Virus record (IMG/VR): IMGVR_UViG_3300046010_004118
Span: 1-32,457 of that record
Direction: 5' to 3' (one strand)
Length of the DNA stretch: 32,457 nucleotides
Source of the DNA: a virus
Shown here: piece by piece, positions 1 through 32,457 of the stretch
Position numbering within the stretch: the first letter of the stretch is position 1
Layout of the letters: the number at the start of each line of letters is the position of its first letter
Program-made: the position numbers and the translations under genes
The notes under the pieces: model-generated
Told to the model about the DNA's origin: nothing
The model's input: the letters and a program-made list of their open reading frames with translations, nothing else
Database searches by the model: none

Positions 1-397
1 GGTTGCATGCATAATCTATGAAAATGATTCTTTCCTTTCGGAGTTGAGATGAATATGACTTTCTTTCCTTTGACCAGGACAGTTGCACTCAAGACCTCAT
101 CCCACAACTCTGGTCTGGTGAAAGCCATCTCATCCACCACCATATAGTCAAAGGTGTTGCCTCGGATGTTATCTGGTCTCTCACCTGAAAAGAATTCAAT
201 TGTGGAGCCAAAGCCAGTGACCAATAAATCTGACCGATTGAAATTAAACAAGCCACTCTTTGCAACTGCTCTCTCAAGATCAGCGAATACTTTCTTGCCT
301 TGCTTATAAACTGGAGTGACCCAAGCTATGCGACAGCCTTTATCATTGATAGCCCACCAAAGTAGTTGATTGATTCCAAGCAAGGTCTTGCCAAACT
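1..397. repeat. Left copy of the terminal overlap
   Basis: Aligns without gaps to 32061-32457. Bases 237-397 are identical to 32297-32457; bases 1-236 carry 18 substitutions. The overlap lies inside terL. Only two amino acids differ (V/I and T/N), so the differences look like strain variation under selection. This supports a circular or circularly permuted genome assembled from a mixed population. Confidence 0.9.
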
Positions 398-1055: not shown

Positions 1056-2123
1056 TTATTTACAATACTTAACATAAAACGTATATGGTAACACTTTCAT
1101 CTTAGTGAGTAGCCATAGGATAATTCTGTACTTTTTAAAGTCATATCTATCGAATTCTGACCGATCTCTCTTTCTGATGTTGATTAGTCTGAGCATTCTC
1201 TCTGCACTGGAGCCAAGCTTTGTGATATCGAATTCTGACTTTTTGTTGAACTGCTCCATGGCTTGCTCTTTGGTGAGCTTGCCACTTCTCACTTGTGCAG
1301 CAAGATAGACAATACGCTTATCAATGTCGAACTTTTCAGGGAGGAGGAATGATCCAACAAACTCAGTATAAACATTCTCGCAATGCTTGCCACCATAATC
1401 TTGCCAGTTGATTAGTCTCTTCATTTCAGCCTCCATTGAGTCTCTATCAAATCCATAGTGAAATGGTCTGACATTCTTAATTCCTAATGCAGCATAGAAT
1501 AGTTGATCCTTGAAAGTGAAGAGAGGATAGTTCTGGAGTCTAAGTCCAGAGTATTTGTTATAAACTGATTGAATGTATTTGGCATCCATATAAGTCCAAC
1601 CTTTTGGAGTTGATCCTTCAGTTCTGAAATCATGACCATTGAGAATGTATTTGATGTTGTACTTGAATGCAGTATCATACATCAGTTTGGTCATTGCAAT
1701 ATCATTTGGAATATCAGCATCTGGAACGCCAGCCCATAAGAATGCATCATTGAGTCTATCGTATTCCTCCTTATTCACAGTATATGTAATTGAGTCAACT
1801 CCGAGGAGCTTGACCAGTTGAGTCATATTGTGCACAGCTTCAGGAGCATTCCAATGATTGTCGAAATGAATCACCAATGGTCTCAATCCCCAGTATTTCA
1901 CAGCTGTGAATAATAGAGTTGAGGAGTCAATACCTCCAGAGATTCCCATGATGCAGTCATAGGTCTTGTCTCTACCTTTCTTTTTAATCTCTTTTACAAT
2001 GAACTTCAGCTCAAGAGGATTGGCTTGTCTCTCCAGCTCATCATGAAGATCACAGTATTCACATTGCTCATCACCTATATGAGCTATGGTCTCATTAAAC
2101 AAACAGCGTTGACATTCTTTCAT
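1056..2123 (-). CDS. N-acetyl sugar amidotransferase-like PP-loop protein (WbpG/PseA type)
   Basis: 355 residues from the ATG at 2123; an upstream in-frame start at 2171 is rejected because it adds an unlike leader inside the previous gene. A four-cysteine knuckle (C4, C7, C21, C24) is followed by the PP-loop SGGIDSS at residues 62-68, which binds ATP for adenylation. Further landmarks are NGHDFRTEG, a WTYMDAKYI segment and YGGKHCENVYTEF, all typical of the family that turns acetamido groups on surface sugars into acetamidino groups. In bacteria such enzymes receive ammonia from HisH/HisF-like partners; none is seen here, so host partners or free ammonia would be needed. Overlaps the preceding glycosyltransferase gene by 29 nt, so co-translated with it. 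Family assignment is strong; the substrate is unknown. Confidence 0.85.
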   Translation of the reverse strand: MKECQRCLFNETIAHIGDEQCEYCDLHDELERQANPLELKFIVKEIKKKGRDKTYDCIMGISGGIDSSTLLFTAVKYWGLRPLVIHFDNHWNAPEAVHNMTQLVKLLGVDSITYTVNKEEYDRLNDAFLWAGVPDADIPNDIAMTKLMYDTAFKYNIKYILNGHDFRTEGSTPKGWTYMDAKYIQSVYNKYSGLRLQNYPLFTFKDQLFYAALGIKNVRPFHYGFDRDSMEAEMKRLINWQDYGGKHCENVYTEFVGSFLLPEKFDIDKRIVYLAAQVRSGKLTKEQAMEQFNKKSEFDITKLGSSAERMLRLINIRKRDRSEFDRYDFKKYRIILWLLTKMKVLPYTFYVKYCK

Positions 2124-2832
2124 AGTTAACAAAGTTATGATAAATTTTACTAATATACACATTATCCACATGCCGAGTGGAATACTCTCTCATGATTGAT
2201 TGGCAGATGTCATCCACTGACTGCCAAGGGATAGAGGCTGGCAGATCACCATTAAATATTGAACGCCTTCCCATGAGTCCCATTTCAATGTTGGTATTTG
2301 GACAGCCATCATGTGGAGTCAGTCTGAGATTCAGAAAGCATTGAGCATAGACATCAAAGATCTCTGACTTTGCGAATGTATCATGACCAGCTCTGATGAT
2401 AGGGATGTTGATTCGTTCTTTGATTTCGTTGATTAGCTCTTGACCATAATACTCTGGAGCATTTCCAGAATACCAGAATATCTTATCTCCATTTGGCACC
2501 AATGGATAGTGATGTGGAATGACTGCATTGATAGGACACCAGATTGCCTCCACTCCTTTGGATGCCAAAGTCTCAAGGACTTGATGACTGACAGCAATGT
2601 TGACTGATTCTTTCACAAACTTAATCCAATCATCTGGCAGATCCTTGGCATCTGATCCAAACCAAACAATTGTGCTTGCTCCAAGATGTGTTGCCAACAT
2701 GACAAGATCCTCCTCTCTGTACATGCCCATGAACAGAGTATCAATGATCGGTGATTCGTATGCTGTTAAGTTAAATTTTTGAATGAGTCCTTTGTCAAGA
2801 CCAGCAAGAGATTCTGAGATATGTGCTTGCAT
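2095..2832 (-). CDS. GT-B-fold glycosyltransferase-like protein
   Basis: 245 residues. The pattern resembles the GT4-like phage proteins: an N-terminal half with LVMLATHLGASTIVWFGSDA, then a nucleotide-sugar-binding-like half with KIFWYSGNAPEYYG, IPIIRAGHDT and PNTNIEMGLMGRR, the last resembling the sugar-nucleotide-contacting E(x)nE region of GT-B enzymes. Starts with a 1-nt overlap on the stop of the upstream GT2 gene (TAATG) and runs 29 nt into the amidotransferase gene, so the three form one sugar-modifying unit. Donor and acceptor cannot be read from the sequence. Confidence 0.7.
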   Translation of the reverse strand: MQAHISESLAGLDKGLIQKFNLTAYESPIIDTLFMGMYREEDLVMLATHLGASTIVWFGSDAKDLPDDWIKFVKESVNIAVSHQVLETLASKGVEAIWCPINAVIPHHYPLVPNGDKIFWYSGNAPEYYGQELINEIKERINIPIIRAGHDTFAKSEIFDVYAQCFLNLRLTPHDGCPNTNIEMGLMGRRSIFNGDLPASIPWQSVDDICQSIMREYSTRHVDNVYISKIYHNFVNYERMSTLFV

Positions 2833-3530
2833 TATAATAGTTGTTTAATTTCACTAAACTCTTTATCCAATAGACTGACATTACATCTCTCTGACTTCAG
2901 AGATCCAGTCCAATGATCGGTGAATTTATGTTTGTTATTCCATTTGTTTGTCGAGATGGATAGCAGTTGAACTGAGTTGTCACATTCCAAGATTCCAATG
3001 TCTTGGTTGCTCTTCATAGCCTTGAGCCACATTGACCAATCAAGACCAGAGTTGAGTTGACCATTGAATGGAGTCCAGTTGATAGCCTCCAGGAATTCTC
3101 TATTTAAAAATCGACCAATGCCGATTGGCTCATTCTGCCTCATCTGATCCTTGTATCCTTTCCAATGCACAAGTCTGATTGACTCAGAGACATCAGCAAA
3201 GTGACAGCCAAGTTGACCAATCATTCCAAAGTCCTTGCTGTGCTCCTTGCATCTTTGAATGTATCCATCACTGCACCAGTCAGATGATCCCATAAAGATG
3301 ACAGCATCAGCATTGTAATTCTTTGAGGCTTGGAATCCTTTATTCCATTTGTTGCCAAGAGGATCATTGTCAATGGAGATGAATTCAACCTCCATTTGCA
3401 TGGCAATATCCATTGCCTCTCTCTCATGGCCTAAAATTATCGGAGTTACTCCTTGGCTCTTAAGTCTTGAGATAGTTAATCTGACAAGAGGAAATCTACC
3501 AAATACTGGTATCGGAGCTGTGACTATCAT
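2832..3530 (-). CDS. Family 2 (GT-A) glycosyltransferase
   Basis: 232 residues. Begins with the short beta-strand opening of a GT-A fold (MIVTAPIPVFGRFPLVRLTI), followed by NDPLGNKWNKGF, a signature I know from phage GT2-like proteins, and VIFMGSSDWCSDGY, where SDW stands in the place of the metal-binding DxD. Acceptor-side features such as LNSGLDWSMW follow. First member of the three-gene sugar cluster in transcription order. Likely transfers a sugar to a host surface glycan or a phage component; which one is not shown by the sequence. Confidence 0.78.
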   Translation of the reverse strand: MIVTAPIPVFGRFPLVRLTISRLKSQGVTPIILGHEREAMDIAMQMEVEFISIDNDPLGNKWNKGFQASKNYNADAVIFMGSSDWCSDGYIQRCKEHSKDFGMIGQLGCHFADVSESIRLVHWKGYKDQMRQNEPIGIGRFLNREFLEAINWTPFNGQLNSGLDWSMWLKAMKSNQDIGILECDNSVQLLSISTNKWNNKHKFTDHWTGSLKSERCNVSLLDKEFSEIKQLL

Positions 3531-6856: not shown

Positions 6857-7207
6857 TTAAATTTTTCTGGTTAAAGAATTTGAGGCTTTCTCTGCAAAAT
6901 CTTTCAATTCTTTTTTATCCGATTCTGTTAGGTCGATACTTGTTAGCCATCCTTGCCCAAAATTGAATCGAGTTTCTTTTTCATCTAAAACCTTAGTGTA
7001 TATTTTGTTATTTTGAGTATCTAAAAATGGAAACAAAATTCTCATTTTATCTAACACACCTGTGCGCTCCAGCTCATTTACATATCCAACTAGCGACTTA
7101 ACATAAGTTAATCTTGTATATGCAAAACCCCTCGTATTAAATTTAATTTGATCTATCTTAATTGCTTTAAAATAATCTCTAAGCATTTGTTTGTTTTTTG
7201 GTGTCAT
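6857..7207 (-). CDS. Protein of unknown function, 116 residues
   Basis: Starts at the ATG inside junction repeat copy 2 (7207); a longer in-frame reading to 7276 only translates the end of the upstream gene in another frame. The protein is mixed alpha/beta with many charged residues (for example RGFAYTRLTYVKSLVGYVNE) and a C-terminal helix ending SNSLTRKI. No family recognised. It sits between the small-gene array and the nuclease gene, so a replication- or recombination-linked accessory role is possible. Confidence 0.6.
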   Translation of the reverse strand: MTPKNKQMLRDYFKAIKIDQIKFNTRGFAYTRLTYVKSLVGYVNELERTGVLDKMRILFPFLDTQNNKIYTKVLDEKETRFNFGQGWLTSIDLTESDKKELKDFAEKASNSLTRKI

Positions 7208-7227
7208 TCTATTCTGATTTAAAGGTT
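7205..7227 (-). repeat. Junction repeat, copy 2
   Basis: Identical over 23 bases to copies 1, 3 and 4. It encodes the last residues TFKSE and the TAG of the 66-residue gene, one A, then the ATG of the next gene. Similarity with copy 5 extends about 25 bases further into the EQYYNET coding stretch. Confidence 0.9.
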
Positions 7228-7409
7228 TCATTGTAGTATTGTTCTGGTGTTCCATGGAATAATGCATCTCTTGCATCTATTATTTGATTCTCAAATATTT
7301 TATCTGCTCTTTCAACTATATCTTCAGGAACTCCCTCATGGAAATATCCATTATTAAATAGTTGTTGTACTAACCATTCTACTGCTGTTAACTGTTTTTC
7401 TTTTTTCAT
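7209..7409 (-). CDS. EQYYNET-family small protein, paralog 1
   Basis: 66 residues. N-terminal helix with LTAVEWLVQQLF, a middle acidic helix, and C-terminus PEQYYNETFKSE. I recall this TAVEW...EQYYNET layout as a widespread small family in Bacteroidetes phages with no known function. Two further relatives follow at 7411-7614 and 7755-7949. Starts in repeat copy 3 and ends in copy 2, with stop and next start arranged as TAGAATG. Confidence 0.75.
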   Translation of the reverse strand: MKKEKQLTAVEWLVQQLFNNGYFHEGVPEDIVERADKIFENQIIDARDALFHGTPEQYYNETFKSE

Positions 7410-7429
7410 TCTATTCTGATTTAAAGGTT
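7407..7429 (-). repeat. Junction repeat, copy 3
   Basis: Same 23 bases as copies 1, 2 and 4. Ends the 67-residue gene (TFKSE, TAG) and starts the 66-residue gene. Confidence 0.9.
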
Positions 7430-7614
7430 TCTAAATTCATATATCCATCAAAGTCTAAAATTTTCATATCTTCTCTGTCACATCTAATTGCAAATTCTGC
7501 ATATTCTTGTGCTTGTTTGGATTCCATTTCTTTGGCTTCTTCAAAATCTTTCTGATTAAAACCAATTCCTCTTTGAATAAGTCTTAATTTAAATAACTCT
7601 ACTGCTGTTTTCAT
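7411..7614 (-). CDS. EQYYNET-family-like small protein, paralog 2 (diverged)
   Basis: 67 residues. Opens with MKTAVELFKLRLIQRGIGF, has the family's acidic EEAKEMESKQAQEYA helix, but the C-terminal EQYYNE is replaced by DGYMNLE before the shared TFKSE end. The shared end is encoded by the junction repeat rather than by family descent alone. Starts in repeat copy 4, ends in copy 3. Confidence 0.7.
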   Translation of the reverse strand: MKTAVELFKLRLIQRGIGFNQKDFEEAKEMESKQAQEYAEFAIRCDREDMKILDFDGYMNLETFKSE

Positions 7615-7634
7615 TCTATTCTGATTTAAAGGTT
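7612..7634 (-). repeat. Junction repeat, copy 4
   Basis: Same 23 bases as copies 1-3. Ends the 45-residue gene (TFKSE, TAG) and starts the 67-residue gene. Confidence 0.9.
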
Positions 7635-7753
7635 ACTTTTAATTTAATAGTCCAAGTTTTTCTTAGCCAACCAAGAAAAAATTCAGAACATCCATCAGCA
7701 TACTTTGTATATGCTAACATAGGGAATATTAACCATGTTTTATCTTCTTTCAT
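7616..7753 (-). CDS. 45-residue protein with WLIFPMLAY...GWLRKTW motifs
   Basis: Starts at the ATG of repeat copy 5 (7753), not at the longer in-frame position 7834, whose extra residues merely translate the repeat in the wrong frame. The sequence contains WLIFPMLAYTKY, GCSEFFLGWL and RKTWTIKLK, an aromatic-rich pattern I associate with tiny proteins accompanying the EQYYNET family. It is unrelated to its neighbours, yet ends in the same TFKSE. Function unknown. Confidence 0.6.
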   Translation of the reverse strand: MKEDKTWLIFPMLAYTKYADGCSEFFLGWLRKTWTIKLKVTFKSE

Positions 7754-7773
7754 TCTATTCTGATTTAAATGTT
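7751..7773 (-). repeat. Junction repeat, copy 5 (one mismatch)
   Basis: Differs from the other copies at one base (AAATGTT for AAAGGTT on the plus strand). Ends the 64-residue gene and starts the 45-residue gene. Confidence 0.88.
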
Positions 7774-7949
7774 TCGTTGTAGTATTGTTCTGAAGTTCTA
7801 ATTTGTTTAGATACAAAATGTAGTTCACCATCACAATAAGATTTTCTTATCTGCTCTTTCTCCATTTCTTTGGCTATTTGAATATCCTTTAAAGTAATAC
7901 AACTTTTTTTTACAAATTGATCAAATAACCATTCTACTGCTGTTTTCAT
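7755..7949 (-). CDS. EQYYNET-family small protein, paralog 3
   Basis: 64 residues from the ATG at 7949 (MKTAVEWLFDQFVKK); a reading from 7970 adds seven unlikely residues that overlap the upstream small gene. It carries the family's AKEMEKEQIRKSYCDGE centre and the SEQYYNETFKSE end. First member of the repeat-linked array in transcription order and the only one whose start is not made by a repeat copy. Confidence 0.75.
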   Translation of the reverse strand: MKTAVEWLFDQFVKKSCITLKDIQIAKEMEKEQIRKSYCDGELHFVSKQIRTSEQYYNETFKSE

Positions 7950-7950
7950 A

Positions 7951-8043
7951 TCATGAATATTTAGTAACATAAATCAATGCATCCAATGCTATGCATACCT
8001 GTTGGACTTTCTTTCTTTGTTTTGTTGTTAGTTTATTTTCCAT
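7951..8043 (-). CDS. 30-residue peptide gene (hidden)
   Basis: Starts in the final codons of the primase-helicase gene (overlapping its stop by 11 nt) and ends one base before the next ATG (TGAT ATG-type spacing). The peptide opens MENKLTTKQRKKVQQVCIAL and ends VTKYS; a basic helix followed by a hydrophobic one. Tight packing on both sides supports expression; no family recognised. Confidence 0.45.
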   Translation of the reverse strand: MENKLTTKQRKKVQQVCIALDALIYVTKYS

Positions 8044-18631: not shown

Positions 18632-18656
18632 AAGATATTTTTTTTTTAATGTTTAT

Positions 18657-21342: not shown

Positions 21343-21990
21343 ATGATTTTTGTTTATCCATATCATTCAAGAGCTGAGTCTGACTTTGAAATCAAGCAAT
21401 CTATTGCAATGGTCCTCAAAGTTTATCCTGGTGCAGAGATCTGGACAGTTGGCAAAGCTGTGCCAGGAATCAACAACATACCATGCACTCAACACAACAA
21501 CATCAGAGGCTGTGATGTGACCAATAGGATCCTGACCTTTGCCAAGAAAGTTGGAGGAGAGTTTATCTATATGAACAAAGATTTCTTTATCACTCAGTCA
21601 TGGCAGCCACATGTGGCTATCAACATGAAGAGCCTCATTGTCAATGATGACCATCCTCCACATACAAAGGTAGCTCAGTCAAATACATTGGAATTCCTCA
21701 AGCATAACAGCTTTACAGCTTACAATTATGAGACACATACTCCATGTGTAATGGATAGCAAAAAACTGATTGAACTATTTGACAATATCAACTGGCAGAA
21801 TGATAACCATTTTATTAAGTCAATATATTGTAATGTTTACCAGGTACCATCAAAGGAAGGATTCAATTGTAAGGTATCAACTCCATCCATTGCCAAAGCT
21901 CAAGAGTTCATTGCACTCCAGGGATGTTTCTCAACTGGAGATCAGTTCTGGAATAAGCCTTGTGTTGAATGGATTAAAAGCTTGACTTAG
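21343..21990 (+). CDS. Stealth-like / glycosyltransferase-like protein (only plus-strand gene)
   Basis: 215 residues from the ATG at 21343 (a TTG at 21334 is the longer choice). The protein opens MIFVYPYHSRAESDFEIKQS, followed by IWTVGKAVPGINNIPCTQ and, near residue 85, GGEFIYMNKDFFITQ. The order (paired start strand, VG-x-x-P near residue 40, then FIYMN-D-FFI) resembles Stealth-type hexose-phosphate transferases and related glycosyltransferases. Its last 17 bases overlap the end of the tape measure gene on the other strand. It looks like an inserted cargo gene with its own promoter. The enzymatic call is moderate. Confidence 0.55.
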   Translation: MIFVYPYHSRAESDFEIKQSIAMVLKVYPGAEIWTVGKAVPGINNIPCTQHNNIRGCDVTNRILTFAKKVGGEFIYMNKDFFITQSWQPHVAINMKSLIVNDDHPPHTKVAQSNTLEFLKHNSFTAYNYETHTPCVMDSKKLIELFDNINWQNDNHFIKSIYCNVYQVPSKEGFNCKVSTPSIAKAQEFIALQGCFSTGDQFWNKPCVEWIKSLT

Positions 21991-24619
21991 CCTCTTGTAC
22001 TTGCACCTTGTTTTGAGTGCCAGTGATGTCAGATTCTAAGACAACCACTTGTGATGTCATTGTCTGACCTTGTTGACCTTGACCAAGCTGATTCAAGTCA
22101 GTTGTCTGAGCTTGTGTGTTGGCTGTGAATGAACTTGCACCAGCTCCACTCAATGCACCGCCACCTCCAGATGATAATTGTGGAGGAGTGGGAGCTGAGC
22201 CAGCTTGATACTTTTGATTCATGATGGCCATTGCTTGAGTGATTCCAATCAATGAGGCTGATGCAATTGCAGCAATACCAGCTGGAGATGGAGGTGGCCC
22301 AAATTGTGCAATACCTTTGACAATGGCTGAGGCTGTATCAATACCAACCTGTGCCAATCTTAGAGCCTTGTCTCTTGCAAATTGTGCTTTCTTAATTTTC
22401 TCCTCTTCATTGTAGGCTTTCAACTGCACTTGATACTTTTGTTGTGCAAAGTTTTCCTCAATCTGTTTCTTTTGATCAGCAGTCAATCCCTCTTGGCTAA
22501 GTTGTGCCTGGAGATTCTTGTCAAGATTAGCAAGATCTGCATCTCTATTCTCAGCTATTCTGTTTAATCTTGCTTGATCTATCTCATTGACAAGAGCATT
22601 GATTTTCTTAAGTTCATCCAATCCTTTCTGAGCTCCCTCAATTGCATCTGTCACTCCCTTAAGTTGCTCCTCTCTTGCCTTAATTGCATTGGCCTTTGCT
22701 TGATCATCATATTTTTTATCAAGCTCTGCTTTCTTTATTCTGAATTGTTCCTGAGCTTTTAAGTTAGCATCATAGAATTCCTCCTCATCAATAGCCTCAG
22801 CTTTGAAAGCTGCCAAGTTCAATGCCTCTTGTTTTTTCAATGCCTCTTCCAAATCAAGCAATTCATTCTCTCTATCAGTATTTAAGAATCTTTGCAATTG
22901 ATCTCTTAATGATTTTTTCTTAGCCTCATTCTCTGCAATCTTGTCAAGCTCAATCTGGTTATACTTATTGACAATGGCAATTCTTTCAGCTGCCTCTTGC
23001 ACAGCAATTTGTGACAATAACTCAGCATTGCCATGAGCTTGATCTCTAAGCTTGTCATACTTCATGGTTGATAGCAAAAGCTCCTTCTCTTGATTCTCAG
23101 CCATCAAGTCAAGACTCAATTGGAATTGTTCATCCTCAGCCTTGATTCTATCCTCATTTGCTTTACGTTCAATCTCAGCCAATCTCTCAGCTTCTTTCTT
23201 GGCATCCTCTCTCCTCTTCTCAGCTCTTGCCTTGGCCTTGTCAGATCTTGCTTTTGCAGCATCATCATCTTTCTTGTCTTGCTCAATTCTTAATACCTCA
23301 AGATCCTGAGCATTCTTTTTATTAACCTTGAATTGTTCAAAACTGTTTTTCTTTGCATCCTTAAGTGACTTCTCAAGTTTCTTAGCTCTGTCACTATCAG
23401 CATCTCCTGTTGCCTTGAGTAGTTTAATCTCAGCCTCATATGCTGCAATCTTTTGCTTTTGCATTTCAAGGATGGCTCTTCCTGACTTAAGAGCTGCCTT
23501 AAGTTTTTTCTCCTCCATTTCCTCAGTATTCTTTCCAGCAGCTTGTGCTTTTCGAATCTCAAAGGATAGATTGTCATCAACAGCTTGAGCTTTTTTCTTT
23601 TCAGCTGCAATCTTTTTATTCATCTCTTTCTCAGTGGCATCAGTCTTGGCTCTTGCATTTTTTTTCATCTTTGCAGTTTGCTCATCATCAACCACTCCAA
23701 AATATTCAAGAGCTTTAATCACTCCATATATAACAGCAATGAAAGGAAACATAACACCGATTACAATCTTAACTGCTGGTCCAAGTTTATTAAACCAGTT
23801 GTAAGCTTTCATAACAGCTGCTGAGACCTTGTCAAAGTTGGCAATGAGTAATCCAACAGCAACAACAATAGCACCAATACCAGTTGCAATCAAAGCTATT
23901 CTGAATAGCTTCATCCCAGTAGTTGCTGTGCTTGTTGCTGCAGCAAGGGATACATTTGCTGTGGCTTGTGCCTCAGTTGCTGCTGCATTTGCCAATGCTG
24001 GTGCAATAGATCCAGTCAATACAAATTGCTTAGCCTTCTCAAGACCATTTCTTAATTGCAAGCCAAGAATTGACTCCTTATTCAAGTTATTTGAAATGAT
24101 ACTAACTGAGTTGACTAATCCCTGGACAGCTTGCAACTTAACCATTGTCTCAGTTAAAGCCTCAGACTCAACACCAGTCAATGCAACTGCTGATTGAATA
24201 CCTTGGAATGCAGCTGCTCCAGTCTCAACTCCTTGCAAAGTTGTATCTAAGCCAACAAAGTCAGATGACAAAGCTGTTGTCTGAGCCTTAAGATCACCAA
24301 TCTCATCCTTAAGATTTGCAGCGTTTCTAATTGCTTGTGCTCCAATAGGACTCTCAGCTCCAGCCTGAGCTGCCAAGTTCTGATAGTCCTTCATGGTCTT
24401 GGTCAACTCCCTCATAGTAAGTCCACCAGCCTCAACTCTTGCATTTAGTTCCTGAAGTTTTTGGTCAAAGGTATCAATGCCAGTACTATCTGCTGCTGTT
24501 TTTTGTGTTGCCTTGAGATCTTGATTCAAGTCATTAACAGCTGCATCCATGGCCTGAATGTCATTAACACTATTTCCAGTGTTAACCTTGAGTGAGAATA
24601 CAACTGACTTCTCTGCCAT
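21974..24619 (-). CDS. Tail tape measure protein
   Basis: 881 residues. An N-terminal helical region (1-180) is followed by two hydrophobic segments near residues 240-262 (LIATGIGAIVVAVGLLIANF) and 285-303 (IVIGVMFPFIAVIYGVIKAL), a very long K/E/A-rich coiled coil (about 310-730), a hydrophobic A/G-rich part (SAIVKGIAQFGPPPSPAGIA) and a Q/S/G-rich end. This sets tail length; it also suggests a siphovirus-like or myovirus-like long tail. By hand count it has only 5 CpG in 2,646 bases. Confidence 0.88.
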   Translation of the reverse strand: MAEKSVVFSLKVNTGNSVNDIQAMDAAVNDLNQDLKATQKTAADSTGIDTFDQKLQELNARVEAGGLTMRELTKTMKDYQNLAAQAGAESPIGAQAIRNAANLKDEIGDLKAQTTALSSDFVGLDTTLQGVETGAAAFQGIQSAVALTGVESEALTETMVKLQAVQGLVNSVSIISNNLNKESILGLQLRNGLEKAKQFVLTGSIAPALANAAATEAQATANVSLAAATSTATTGMKLFRIALIATGIGAIVVAVGLLIANFDKVSAAVMKAYNWFNKLGPAVKIVIGVMFPFIAVIYGVIKALEYFGVVDDEQTAKMKKNARAKTDATEKEMNKKIAAEKKKAQAVDDNLSFEIRKAQAAGKNTEEMEEKKLKAALKSGRAILEMQKQKIAAYEAEIKLLKATGDADSDRAKKLEKSLKDAKKNSFEQFKVNKKNAQDLEVLRIEQDKKDDDAAKARSDKAKARAEKRREDAKKEAERLAEIERKANEDRIKAEDEQFQLSLDLMAENQEKELLLSTMKYDKLRDQAHGNAELLSQIAVQEAAERIAIVNKYNQIELDKIAENEAKKKSLRDQLQRFLNTDRENELLDLEEALKKQEALNLAAFKAEAIDEEEFYDANLKAQEQFRIKKAELDKKYDDQAKANAIKAREEQLKGVTDAIEGAQKGLDELKKINALVNEIDQARLNRIAENRDADLANLDKNLQAQLSQEGLTADQKKQIEENFAQQKYQVQLKAYNEEEKIKKAQFARDKALRLAQVGIDTASAIVKGIAQFGPPPSPAGIAAIASASLIGITQAMAIMNQKYQAGSAPTPPQLSSGGGGALSGAGASSFTANTQAQTTDLNQLGQGQQGQTMTSQVVVLESDITGTQNKVQVQEAKSSF

Positions 24620-28892: not shown

Positions 28893-30076
28893 TAGTTCAG
28901 TTGTGATCTATATGTGTATGTTCTTTCAATTGTAATCTGCTCCTGGATTAATCCATCTCTCCTCCTATTTTTCAGCTGATAGCTTGAATTGGTCACTTTC
29001 ACTGGCTCAAATTCAGTTGAATTGTTTTGCTCAAGATAAACCAAAGGAGAATCAAACAATGAATCAACAAGCCAATTCTGAACTGCCTCTGATATCCAGT
29101 CTGAATTCAAAACTAATTGCTTGCTCTTGGTCTTGGCAAAATGAATCTTTTGACCAGAGTACAATGGATATGTGTAGCTTGTGCCATCCCATACTCCAGG
29201 ATCTCTCTGGTAGTCAAATGCCTGAACAGTTGCTGATTCTGTTGATACCAATGCAAAGGTAAATGAATCCCATGATCCAAGCTTATTCAACCAATGCAAT
29301 CTATATGTCTCATATCTCTTGCAATCAGTATCCATGTAAATGTAATATGTCTCTGAGTTACTTGCTCCACCAACATCAACATAAACAAAATATTTATAAC
29401 AATCATCAAAATCAATTTGAGTTATGGTTGAATTTGAAATGATAGCTTGTGGACCAACATTCAAAATGTTAAATTCAGAGGATGTCAATGAGATATTAAA
29501 ATCTGATGCAATGACATTTCCTTGAATATCATACAACTCACAAGCCAAGGCAACACCAGCTCCTCCTGTTGGTTCCAAATATCCAACATATATATTCTCA
29601 TCCATTCCACAAAGTTGTCTTGATGTCCTTGGAAAATATGTCAAGAATAAGCTCCCTTGAGTTACATTAGGATTATAATCTGCATCATCCCACACTCTCC
29701 ACTCTGGATATTCAAGAGCTGCATTGAATGCTTTCAATGTTGTGCTTGTATCACTGGCTTGAATTGTGGGAGTTGATCCATACTTTTCATATACAATGAT
29801 AGCATATGTGACCATTGAATTGGTGGCATCAAACTCAAGATCAGTTGTGATCTCTGGATTTCTTATCACACTTTGAACAGCTTCAGATACATCAATTCTG
29901 CCAAGAGTATTAAATTGCCTGAACACCTCTTGAGTCAATCTCAATGTGCTATCAATATAAACCTCAACAATAAAACTGAAATTCGGTTGTGCAGTCTGAT
30001 TGCTGCTGAATGTGAACACCAATGGATTCCCAGCTGGTGCAATGAGTTGTGGCTCATCATATATTGTTACTGCCAT
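28892..30076 (-). CDS. Tail-associated structural protein, 394 residues
   Basis: Beta-rich throughout, with repeated fibronectin-like character: LVFTFSSNQTAQPNFSFIVE, LRLTQEVFRQFNTLGRIDVS, and near the end SSYQLKNRRRDGLIQEQITI. The central segment has CKRYETYRLHWLNKLGSWDS, resembling a motif in large Bacteroidetes phage tail proteins. The stop overlaps the start of the 801-residue tail gene by 1 nt. Probably a tail-tip protein; family not named with confidence. Confidence 0.5.
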   Translation of the reverse strand: MAVTIYDEPQLIAPAGNPLVFTFSSNQTAQPNFSFIVEVYIDSTLRLTQEVFRQFNTLGRIDVSEAVQSVIRNPEITTDLEFDATNSMVTYAIIVYEKYGSTPTIQASDTSTTLKAFNAALEYPEWRVWDDADYNPNVTQGSLFLTYFPRTSRQLCGMDENIYVGYLEPTGGAGVALACELYDIQGNVIASDFNISLTSSEFNILNVGPQAIISNSTITQIDFDDCYKYFVYVDVGGASNSETYYIYMDTDCKRYETYRLHWLNKLGSWDSFTFALVSTESATVQAFDYQRDPGVWDGTSYTYPLYSGQKIHFAKTKSKQLVLNSDWISEAVQNWLVDSLFDSPLVYLEQNNSTEFEPVKVTNSSYQLKNRRRDGLIQEQITIERTYTYRSQLN

Positions 30077-30581
30077 TCTTTGTAAAATTTATTTCAAACA
30101 TTAAACCAGTGAGCTCTGCCAAATCATTTCCAATCCTTTCAAGGACTTGATCAGTGATGACATTCTCAGTGATTCTCTTTGGTTGCAATCCTCTTTGCTT
30201 GATGTTGGATGCCACAGCATAAGCATGACTCATATCCAACCCTTTCCACTGGCTGATGGCTGTTGCCATATTGTGAGATACTCCAGGATAGTTGAATGAG
30301 AATTGACTGCCATAGTTGTTGGTGCCAACAGCATTGACTCCCTCATCAACAAATGGAAAGTAATCCTCAGCCTCTAATCTGAATGACAGCTGTCCAGTTG
30401 GTACCGGAATGATTGAGGCTGCCAATGCTCCAGTATTCTGAGCAACTCTCTTTGTGTAATCTCTGAACTCCTCAGCAAGCTGATTGGAAAGGCCAATGAT
30501 AAACCTATCATAAGCATTCTGTGGCTGCTCAGCATCCTGAGTAGTTATTCCAAAGTCCTCAAGAAAATCAAACTCAGCCAT
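30057..30581 (-). CDS. HK97-gp10-like tail completion protein
   Basis: 174 residues. The helical N-terminus (SNQLAEEFRDYTKRVAQNTG) is followed by strands including LSFRLEAEDYFPFVDEGV, and a closing helix. The F-V-D-E-G-V strand is a hallmark of gp10-like proteins. Its ATG lies inside the end of the -1 frame of the chaperone gene, and its end overlaps the 394-residue gene by 20 nt. A minor head or tail-joining role fits, although it is far from the other head genes. Confidence 0.62.
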   Translation of the reverse strand: MAEFDFLEDFGITTQDAEQPQNAYDRFIIGLSNQLAEEFRDYTKRVAQNTGALAASIIPVPTGQLSFRLEAEDYFPFVDEGVNAVGTNNYGSQFSFNYPGVSHNMATAISQWKGLDMSHAYAVASNIKQRGLQPKRITENVITDQVLERIGNDLAELTGLMFEINFTKNGSNNI

Positions 30582-31361
30582 TTCTTAATATGCGTTTTTG
30601 TTCGTTCTCATCCACTATCCTAAAATAGTTCATCCAGAATAATGTTGTCACATAAGGCTGTTGTGTAACCTTTGCCACACTGAGTCCCATTTCTTTGGAT
30701 AGTCTATGAATGATAGTGGTCCAACTGAACCACTCTGAATCTTTAAGTCCTGCTCCATCATCATCATTTCCATCCTCTGCCTCGCCATCTGTATCCCTAA
30801 TATAGCGAGCCTCCGCTTGTCCGATAAGTCCAAAAAAAAACTGAAGAAATTTAAGAACTCATCACCTGGAAAGTTTTCCTTGAATTCCTTGTATCTGGTT
30901 TCATTAGGATTCAGCACTCTTCCTCTATCATCCTCCTGGCAATACTCCATGCCTTTCTCAACATACATAATTGCCAATGCTTGACATGGATCTTGGCTGA
31001 TATCCTCAATCAGTTTCAAGTCAATGATCTGACCAGTTGAGACATGACCAAAGTTTTTCTCAAAGCAATACACCTTGCCATTCACCTCAATCTCAGACTT
31101 TGGCTCCTGGTATTTATAAGTAACCAACAACTGGAGGAGATGGTTGGCAGCAACTTGAATTGATTCAATATCAGCTCGCTTGATCTTGTTGATTGACTCT
31201 CCACTGAATAGACTGAGCAACTGACATTGGAAGATTAACAGCTGAGTGATGTCATCATCTCTCTGCTCTTTCATTGCCTCGGCCATCATCAGCCAGCGAG
31301 TCATCTGTTCAGGGGTGCATGCTGATAGTGTGGTTGGTAGTTTTATCTCAAGTTGTTTCAT
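30574..31361 (-). CDS. Tail assembly chaperone, frameshifted long form (predicted)
   Basis: The unshifted frame (31361 to 30648, 237 residues) opens MKQLEIKLPTTLSACTPEQM and reads as a helical chaperone up to NFFSFF (residue 176). There a run of nine T permits a -1 slip. The -1 frame then stays open for 86 more residues: an acidic linker (EAEDGNDDDGAG), a tryptophan pair (SEWFSWTTIIHRLSKEM) and VAKVTQQPYVTTLFWMNYF, ending at 30574 after overlapping the next start. That C-terminal pattern is typical of the T part of gpG/gpGT-type chaperones, while the unshifted end looks like a shadow. A sequencing indel is the rival explanation. Product 262 residues if shifted. Confidence 0.65.
30834..30840 (-). 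promoter_or_regulatory. Slippery heptamer for programmed -1 frameshifting
   Basis: The coding strand reads T TTT TTT, an X XXY YYZ site in the correct phase (zero-frame codons 175 and 176 are TTT TTT), inside a T9 run (30840-30832). No downstream pseudoknot was modelled; the following 70 bases are G/A-rich. Confidence 0.55.
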
Positions 31362-32457
31362 ACTCTCAAAGCCATATATCTTCCTCGGTTTGTGAATTCC
31401 TTTCTGCTATGCCAAGCCAATGCAGTTGACATCACTCCATCATCATGCAATCCAGCTGGTGCAGAATAACTCACATTCCTGGTATTCGGATTGTAAATAT
31501 AGGAAAAATTATCAAGCTCATCTATCAACCATTGCTCATTGATAATTGAGATAGCTTGTTGCTCGAATGCCACAGCCAAGTCCTCAATGATGATTGGTTT
31601 TGTTTTGGAGCTTGTCACAAATGGATGAATCAGATTCTTGCACCTTGCCTGGAGCATCTCAAAGAACACATCTCCTTGATTGTTCACCTCCACCAATGTG
31701 ATGGCATTGTATTGCTTAATCAACTCAGCAACCTTGTCAATTATCCTGGTCCATTCATCATGCCTCCATCTATCAGCCGTCACCATCTGACCATCTTGAT
31801 TGAGGATGGATAGCACAGTGTAGTCATCAGCTCGGCCAATGTCAAGACCAGCGAACATCTTTGGAGTCTTGGATGCCGAGCCAATGCACTCATGAACATT
31901 CTTGAATATACCAGATGCATTATCAATGAACTCAGCCAAATACTCTTGTCTGAACACATGATCAGGCAATGACCTCTTCCTTTCATCCAATTCTCTTGGA
32001 TCAATCATAGGATTGTCATAAGATGAATAATGAAAGTAGGCATAGCGATCATCATAGTTTGGCTGCATGCATAATCTATGAAAATGATTCTTGCCTTTTG
32101 GAGTTGAGATAAAGATAATCTTCTTTCCTTTGACCAGGACAGTTGCACTCAAGACTTCATCCCATAACTCTGGTCTGGTGAAAGCCATCTCATCCACAAC
32201 CATATAGTCAAATGTGTTACCTCTGATATTATCTGGTCTCTCACCTGAAAAGAATTCAATTGTGGAGCCAAAGCCATTCACCAATAAATCTGACCTATTG
32301 AAATTAAACAAGCCACTCTTTGCAACTGCTCTCTCAAGATCAGCGAATACTTTCTTGCCTTGCTTATAAACTGGAGTGACCCAAGCTATGCGACAGCCTT
32401 TATCATTGATAGCCCACCAAAGTAGTTGATTGATTCCAAGCAAGGTCTTGCCAAACT
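31358..32457 (-). CDS. terL: Terminase large subunit, C-terminal part and right-end copy
   Basis: Runs off the right edge and continues at 500-1. The nuclease half is clear: LDIGRADDYTVLSIL holds the first catalytic aspartate, TLVEVNNQGDVFFEML an acidic residue, and GLHDDGVMSTALAW the final D pair of the RNase H-like fold. The segment that repeats the left end contains the Walker B (VVDEMAF). The stop overlaps the chaperone ATG (ATGA). Unique sequence is 31358-32060; the rest duplicates 1-397 with 18 changes. Confidence 0.93.
   Translation of the reverse strand, partial: FGKTLLGINQLLWWAINDKGCRIAWVTPVYKQGKKVFADLERAVAKSGLFNFNRSDLLVNGFGSTIEFFSGERPDNIRGNTFDYMVVDEMAFTRPELWDEVLSATVLVKGKKIIFISTPKGKNHFHRLCMQPNYDDRYAYFHYSSYDNPMIDPRELDERKRSLPDHVFRQEYLAEFIDNASGIFKNVHECIGSASKTPKMFAGLDIGRADDYTVLSILNQDGQMVTADRWRHDEWTRIIDKVAELIKQYNAITLVEVNNQGDVFFEMLQARCKNLIHPFVTSSKTKPIIIEDLAVAFEQQAISIINEQWLIDELDNFSYIYNPNTRNVSYSAPAGLHDDGVMSTALAWHSRKEFTNRGRYMALRV
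32061..32457. repeat. Right copy of the terminal overlap
   Basis: Partner of 1-397. Identical from 32297 onward; 18 substitutions in 32061-32296, of which three remove a CpG found in the left copy. All differences but those giving two amino acid changes are silent. Confidence 0.9.

What the first reader, a model, noticed from the sequence alone, without database searches (positions are those of the whole stretch)
30574..31361. Probable programmed -1 frameshift in the tail assembly chaperone
Seen: a T9 run contains a correctly phased T TTT TTT heptamer; downstream, the -1 frame is open for 86 codons and looks like protein (acidic linker, SEWFSW, VTQQPYVTTLFWMNYF), while the zero frame ends in a shadow-like R/M-rich tail. 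Known: many long-tailed phages make a longer chaperone by -1 slipping (lambda G/GT). Here the gene is placed right after terL, far from the tape measure, which is unusual for this pair.
Basis: partly seen in the sequence, partly recalled or inferred. Interest (0 to 1): 0.65.

Follow-up and report, generated by a model that had tools for sequence, protein, structure and literature searches.

The report
T9 slippage site in phage tail chaperone
The gene after the terminase of this Bacteroidetes-type phage carries a run of nine T's that is never shorter in about 300 related sequences; it lets the phage make a short and a long version of what is probably a tail-assembly helper, and the strict minimal length of the run points to the RNA-making enzyme slipping rather than, or as well as, the ribosome.

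Summary
The frameshift is real at sequence level. The T9 run (30840-30832, - strand) is exactly nine T's in all 86 close relatives. The -1 frame downstream is under purifying selection and ends at the start of the next gene. The 0-frame tail is not a shadow: it has fixed length and is selected too. A distant family sits in the same place, including the cultured Nonlabens phages P12024S/L, whose gp38 and gp39 are annotated as two separate hypothetical genes. Fused-product profiles match over the whole length (E = 7e-14), slip sites aligned.

Across 307 fetched loci (121 clusters at 90% identity) every run is 9, 10 or 12 T's, never 7 or 8. The register varies, but left and right ends compensate. 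Runs of nine or more A/T are otherwise strongly avoided, and no downstream RNA structure is conserved. A ribosomal heptamer needs only seven T's; nine is the known threshold for RNA-polymerase slippage. I therefore favour transcriptional slippage (0.55) over ribosomal slippage (0.37); both give the same fusion.

Function as a lambda G/GT-like tail chaperone pair is inferred from architecture and synteny (about 0.8); no family model or structure confirmed it. The place after terL is the rule in this group.

The parts
30648..31361 (-). 0-frame ORF (short form, G-like, 237 aa including the tail read after the slip site)
   Evidence: relatives
30832..30840 (-). T9 run (sense strand), the slip site
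   Evidence: invariant in 86 close relatives, at least 9 T in all 307 loci
30834..30840 (-). in-frame T_TTT_TTT heptamer within the T9
30574..30834 (-). -1 frame segment read after the slip (T-like domain: acidic linker, then a predicted helical WxxW...P...L.W..Y domain), ending TGA 30576-30574
   Evidence: selection; homology
30648..30831 (-). dual-coding stretch, both frames under purifying selection
30057..30581 (-). next gene (174 aa); its ATG overlaps the -1 stop
   Evidence: same coupling in 200 of 206 distant loci
31358..32455 (-). terminase large subunit (runs off the window), directly upstream, 4-nt overlap
21974..24619 (-). probable tape measure protein (881 aa; by length, composition and position only), 5.9 kb downstream of the chaperone-like gene
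   Evidence: no family match

Best explanation
The gene is a two-product tail-assembly-chaperone-like gene of a family of Bacteroidetes-type siphophages. Most mRNAs carry nine U's and give the short 0-frame protein. A minority carry an extra U (or lack two) because RNA polymerase slips on the T9 run, so ribosomes read the -1 frame and make a long protein: the first 176 residues (through the two slip-site Phe codons) plus an 86-codon C-terminal domain. By analogy with lambda gpG/gpGT, the common part would coat the tape measure protein and the extra domain would recruit the tail-tube protein. Shown here: the site, its conservation, selection on both frames, homology across the family, and the coupling of the -1 stop to the next gene. 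Inferred: that the slip happens, that polymerase makes it, the product ratio, and the chaperone function.
For: T9 is exactly 9 in 86 contigs. The eight other invariant Phe codons of the gene all vary TTT/TTC, while the two in the run never do, and no other 9-nt stretch of the 0-only region is invariant. Selection by codon phase: -1-only region 0.43/3.65/0.95 changes per site, i.e. at the -1 wobble position. P12024S/L and further contigs show the same site; 80 and 78 more come mostly or wholly through N-terminal patterns that do not contain the site. 307 loci, 121 clusters: runs 9/10/12 only; registers differ but left and right ends compensate (5.2 of 75 lineages expected below nine at 70% clustering, none seen; no shuffle of 20,000 gave none; at 50% clustering p = 0.005). 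Fused-product profiles match over the whole length, E = 7e-14. T>=9 elsewhere: 0 against 6.7 expected, A>=9: 5 against 28.5, with a sharp drop from 8 to 9 as described for transcriptional slippage (PMC1088944). Slippage at nine A or T is efficient in vivo (PMC5009743). No conserved RNA structure. The next ORF starts at the -1 stop in 200 of 206 loci.
Against: The tail chaperone frameshifts described in the papers read are ribosomal (PMC5009743), and any run of nine T's also contains an in-frame U_UUU_UUU. Some of the outer T's are also favoured by coding: a hydrophobic residue before the two Phe, an aromatic residue after, and Leu/Phe in the -1 frame. The compensation rests on a modest number of lineages. 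A9/T9 avoidance could also reflect replication slippage. No transcript or protein data were available. The chaperone function has no sequence or structure match.
Confidence: 0.55

Rival explanations
1. Programmed -1 ribosomal frameshift at U_UUU_UUU (and in the window clade also U_UUU_UUR), as in lambda G/GT; the extra T's are by-products of dual coding. Same two proteins.
For: In-frame heptamer in every one of the 307 loci; precedent in most long-tailed phages (PMC5009743; experimental 6-7% for HK97-like chaperones, PMC3711429); outer T's partly explained by amino acids in the two frames.
Against: No run of seven or eight T's and no U_UUU_UUC or other heptamer in 121 clusters; left/right compensation of run length; no conserved downstream structure and no Shine-Dalgarno-like stretch seen upstream; avoidance of runs of nine or more elsewhere.
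Confidence: 0.37
2. The -1 ORF is a separate small gene translated on its own (re-initiation), as P12024S gp39 is annotated.
For: GenBank annotates gp39 from an ATG overlapping the gp38 stop; PHROGs keeps the two halves as two families, 32199 and 38404.
Against: In the window the conserved -1 protein begins before any ATG/GTG/TTG (first ATG in KEMG); in the family the conserved LSFRxRL follows the slip directly; the T run would need no conservation.
Confidence: 0.05
3. The pair is not a tail chaperone but another two-form morphogenesis protein (this cuts across the other readings).
For: No Pfam, named PHROGs, NCBIfam or PDB match; not next to the tape measure.
Against: A recoding gene in the tail module with short and long forms, an acidic linker then a helical C-terminal domain, and the order terL - this gene - tail genes - tape measure, also seen for the gene after terL in phi46:1 and TCUEAP1.
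Confidence: 0.2
4. Assembly or sequencing error, or a decaying gene split by a frameshift mutation.
For: Homopolymers are error-prone.
Against: Exactly nine T's in 86 contigs from many samples, both frames selected, same site in distant families.
Confidence: 0.01

Closest known systems
Lambda gpG/gpGT and other frameshifted tail assembly chaperones (e.g. HK97-like)
   Same: Short 0-frame protein plus a -1 fusion with an extra C-terminal domain; one such gene in the tail module; slip near the end of the common part.
   Different: Slip site is a T>=9 run of strictly kept minimal length; the gene follows terL and is not next to the tape measure; the 0-frame goes on for many codons after the slip (about 16-84 in the distant family, 61 in the window); no detectable sequence similarity.
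P12024S/P12024L gp38 + gp39 (PHROGs 32199 and 38404, both unknown function)
   Same: Same place after terL, T9 at the homologous codons, homologous common part and -1 domain.
   Different: Register of the run differs by one base; annotated as two separate genes; no frameshift noted in the record seen here.
Transcriptional slippage genes with A9/T9 runs (Thermus thermophilus dnaX, IS elements, Shigella type III genes)
   Same: Nine-base A/T run, avoided elsewhere, no structure needed, reading frame restored or changed in a share of mRNAs (PMC1088944, PMC5009743).
   Different: Those have demonstrated heterogeneous mRNAs; here that is untested.
Elizabethkingia phage TCUEAP1_3 (gene after terL)
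   Same: C-terminal 85 residues resemble the -1 domain of the family (hhalign E 5e-6, probability 70%).
   Different: Domain is in the same frame as the rest of a 180-aa ORF; no T9 run.

Membership tests
Lambda G/GT-type tail assembly chaperone pair | -1 recoding site near the end of the common part giving a short and a long form | tested here: met
   Sequence level only. Products not seen.
Lambda G/GT-type tail assembly chaperone pair | Gene pair directly upstream of the tape measure gene | tested here: not met
   5.9 kb and several genes lie between; it follows terL, as in the rest of this family. So I say 'works like', not 'is a member'.
Lambda G/GT-type tail assembly chaperone pair | Sequence or fold similarity to known chaperones | tested here: inconclusive
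   No hits; models of low confidence (pLDDT 47 and 63).
Lambda G/GT-type tail assembly chaperone pair | Common part binds the tape measure, extra domain binds the tail tube; absent from virions | not testable with these tools
   Needs experiments.
P12024S gp38/gp39 family (PHROGs 32199/38404) | Homology of the common part | tested here: met
   hhalign E 4.7e-7, 1e-10; a single-sequence scan against PHROGs misses it.
P12024S gp38/gp39 family (PHROGs 32199/38404) | Homology of the -1 domain and of the slip position | tested here: met
   Full-length fused profiles E 7e-14 with the slip sites aligned; the -1 domain alone is weak (E 0.003).
Programmed ribosomal -1 frameshift | In-frame X_XXY_YYZ heptamer | tested here: met
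   T_TTT_TTT.
Programmed ribosomal -1 frameshift | Conserved downstream structure or other stimulator | tested here: not met
   No compensatory pairs; some sites work without one, so not decisive.
Transcriptional slippage site | Run of at least nine A or T, kept by selection, avoided elsewhere | tested here: met
Transcriptional slippage site | mRNAs of mixed run length | not testable with these tools
   No transcript reads available.

The most novel reading that the evidence does not exclude
A large family of Bacteroidetes-type tailed phages makes its tail-chaperone pair by RNA-polymerase slippage on a T>=9 run instead of ribosomal frameshifting, with the length of the run, not its codon register, under selection.
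Probability: 0.5. Interest if true: 0.75.

Novelty: new variant of a known kind. Interest (0 to 1): 0.6.

Why it matters
Frameshifting in tail chaperones is a classic conserved recoding event, described as ribosomal in the papers I could read. Here a family with at least 121 distinct clusters, including two cultured phages whose two halves are annotated as unrelated hypothetical genes, carries a signature that fits polymerase slippage better. If true, the same kind of product pair would have been reached by a different machine, and the question is directly testable in an isolated phage-host pair (P12024S on its host). It also gives a functional hypothesis and a corrected gene model for two unknown PHROGs families.

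Tried and rejected
Family scans of both frames in Pfam, PHROGs, NCBIfam and PDB: nothing. tblastn of both frames against isolated phages: nothing. Genome-contig scans with the gene and with terL profiles: nothing. phi46:1 gp16 and TCUEAP1_3 as homologues: phi46:1 not supported, TCUEAP1_3 only for the C-terminal domain. A downstream stimulatory hairpin: present in part of the window clade, broken in others. Other Bacteroidetes phages with similar terL (RAP44, Harreka_1, phiST, BS-TP2) have a different gene order.

Full report
OBSERVATION. The minus-strand ORF 31361-30648 follows terL with a 4-nt overlap and contains nine T's at 30840-30832, read AG T TTT TTT TTG. A -1 slip on T_TTT_TTT gives ...SFF|FGLIGQAEARYIRDTDGEAEDGNDDDGAGLKDSEWFSWTTIIHRLSKEMGLSVAKVTQQPYVTTLFWMNYFRIVDENEQKRILRNG, ending at TGA 30576-30574, which overlaps the ATG of the next gene. 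A T9 as such is expected about twice in a shuffled window, so the case rests on conservation.

CLOSE RELATIVES. 80 IMG/VR contigs at 73-98% protein identity, plus six more used, all carry exactly nine T's in the same phase. In the 80 checked one by one, the 0-frame stop is 193 nt after the first T and the -1 frame is open to the next gene or to the contig end. On a tree of 68 distinct sequences, changes per site by 0-frame codon position are 1.62/0.73/5.78 in the 0-only part, 0.56/1.56/2.10 in the overlap and 0.43/3.65/0.95 in the -1-only part. So the -1 protein is selected (its wobble position is the 0-frame second position), and in the overlap both wobble positions are slowed. In the first half of the overlap the 0-frame dominates (2.63 at its third position), so the short form's tail is not a mere shadow. 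In the T9 the AGT and the two TTT codons never change. The eight other invariant Phe codons of the gene all switch between TTT and TTC, and none of 512 other 9-nt stretches is invariant.

DISTANT FAMILY. No curated family or isolated phage matched by direct search. A Foldseek list from a weak model (pLDDT 47, used only as a lead) contained a 175-aa protein of Nonlabens phage P12024S. In that genome the gene right after terL, gp38, has T9 at 23578-23586, and the -1 frame runs into gp39, annotated as a separate gene. Searching with gp38 gave 63 contigs at 25-99% identity; 62 of them were examined and all have T9 (one T10) at the homologous place. Two further scans gave 80 and 79 new loci. 77 of the 80 lack the FFYHLGN pattern, and the patterns of the second scan lie wholly in the N-terminal part, so nearly all were found blind to the site. 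Every one that reaches the site has nine or more T's (one contig of the second scan ends before it). Profile-profile alignment of the window clade with this family gives E = 1e-10 for the common part and 7e-14 for the fused product over its whole length, with the slip sites aligned. The -1 domain alone is a weak match (E = 0.003).

GENE CONTEXT. terL lies upstream in 182 of 194 loci with enough flank. An ORF of at least 80 aa starts close to the -1 stop in 200 of 206, mostly at -8 to 0 nt, while the 0-frame stop lies a median of 68 nt earlier. The -1 stop, not the 0-frame stop, therefore looks like the functional end of the gene. The place after terL is thus typical for the group, not odd.

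LEVEL OF THE SLIP. In 307 loci (some are the same contig fetched twice; 121 clusters at 90% identity) the run is 9 (280), 10 (26) or 12 (1). Written as T's left and right of the last two Phe codons, the combinations are 2+1, 1+2, 2+2, 3+1, 3+0, 4+0 and 5+1. When one side is short the other is long. Shuffling sides among 75 lineages (70% identity) gives 5.2 lineages below nine on average and never none in 20,000 shuffles; among 21 lineages (50%) p = 0.005. A ribosomal heptamer would tolerate seven or eight. Caveats: the run defines its own anchor, lineages are not fully independent, and some outer T's are also favoured by the two proteins. In other genes of 110 clusters, T>=9 occurs 0 times against 6.7 expected and A>=9 5 against 28.5, whereas A8 is 31 against 41 (similar for A in seven near-complete genomes). 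This break at nine is what Baranov et al. describe for transcriptional slippage (PMC1088944). No downstream structure is conserved in the window clade or in the family. I therefore put polymerase slippage at 0.55 and ribosomal slippage at 0.37. One extra U gives exactly the same protein as a -1 ribosomal slip, so only RNA data can decide.

FUNCTION. A short and a long form from one recoding gene in a tail module, with an acidic linker and a helical C-terminal domain, is what lambda G/GT-type chaperones look like (review PMC5009743). This is resemblance of design. Membership by sequence was inconclusive, position next to the tape measure was not met, and binding was not testable. I put chaperone function at about 0.8.

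NOVELTY. In the library searched, no paper listed joins tail chaperones with transcriptional slippage as a demonstrated mechanism or reports the frameshift in flavobacterial phages. New variant of a known kind; interest 0.6, rising if RNA data confirm polymerase slippage.

Noticed in passing
window 4-397 and 32064-32457: The two ends of the window overlap over 394 nt of terL at 95.7% identity; related records of 32-33 kb are cut at other points. The genome is probably complete and circularly permuted, assembled from slightly different strains.
   Followed up: partly
window 7204-7970, - strand: Four small tandem ORFs of about 66-72 aa share a C-terminus (...TFKSE) and a 20-45 nt repeated end; a small gene array of unknown function.
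   Followed up: partly
window 1056-3530, - strand: An ATP-pyrophosphatase-like gene (weak NAD_synthase/PAPS_reduct matches; looks like an N-acetyl sugar amidotransferase) followed by two genes that look glycan-related by eye (no Pfam match), in a 32-kb phage.
   Followed up: partly
L218 2164-2706 (Elizabethkingia phage TCUEAP1): Gene after terL whose C-terminal 85 residues resemble the -1 domain in the same frame, without a T9; possibly a fused or unshifted relative.
   Followed up: partly
window 18638-18647: T10 run on the + strand between the probable major capsid and tail tube genes, outside coding; possibly part of a terminator.
   Followed up: no
loci L235-L460: Runs of nine or more A/T are strongly avoided in the other genes of these phages, with a sharp break between 8 and 9.
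   Followed up: yes
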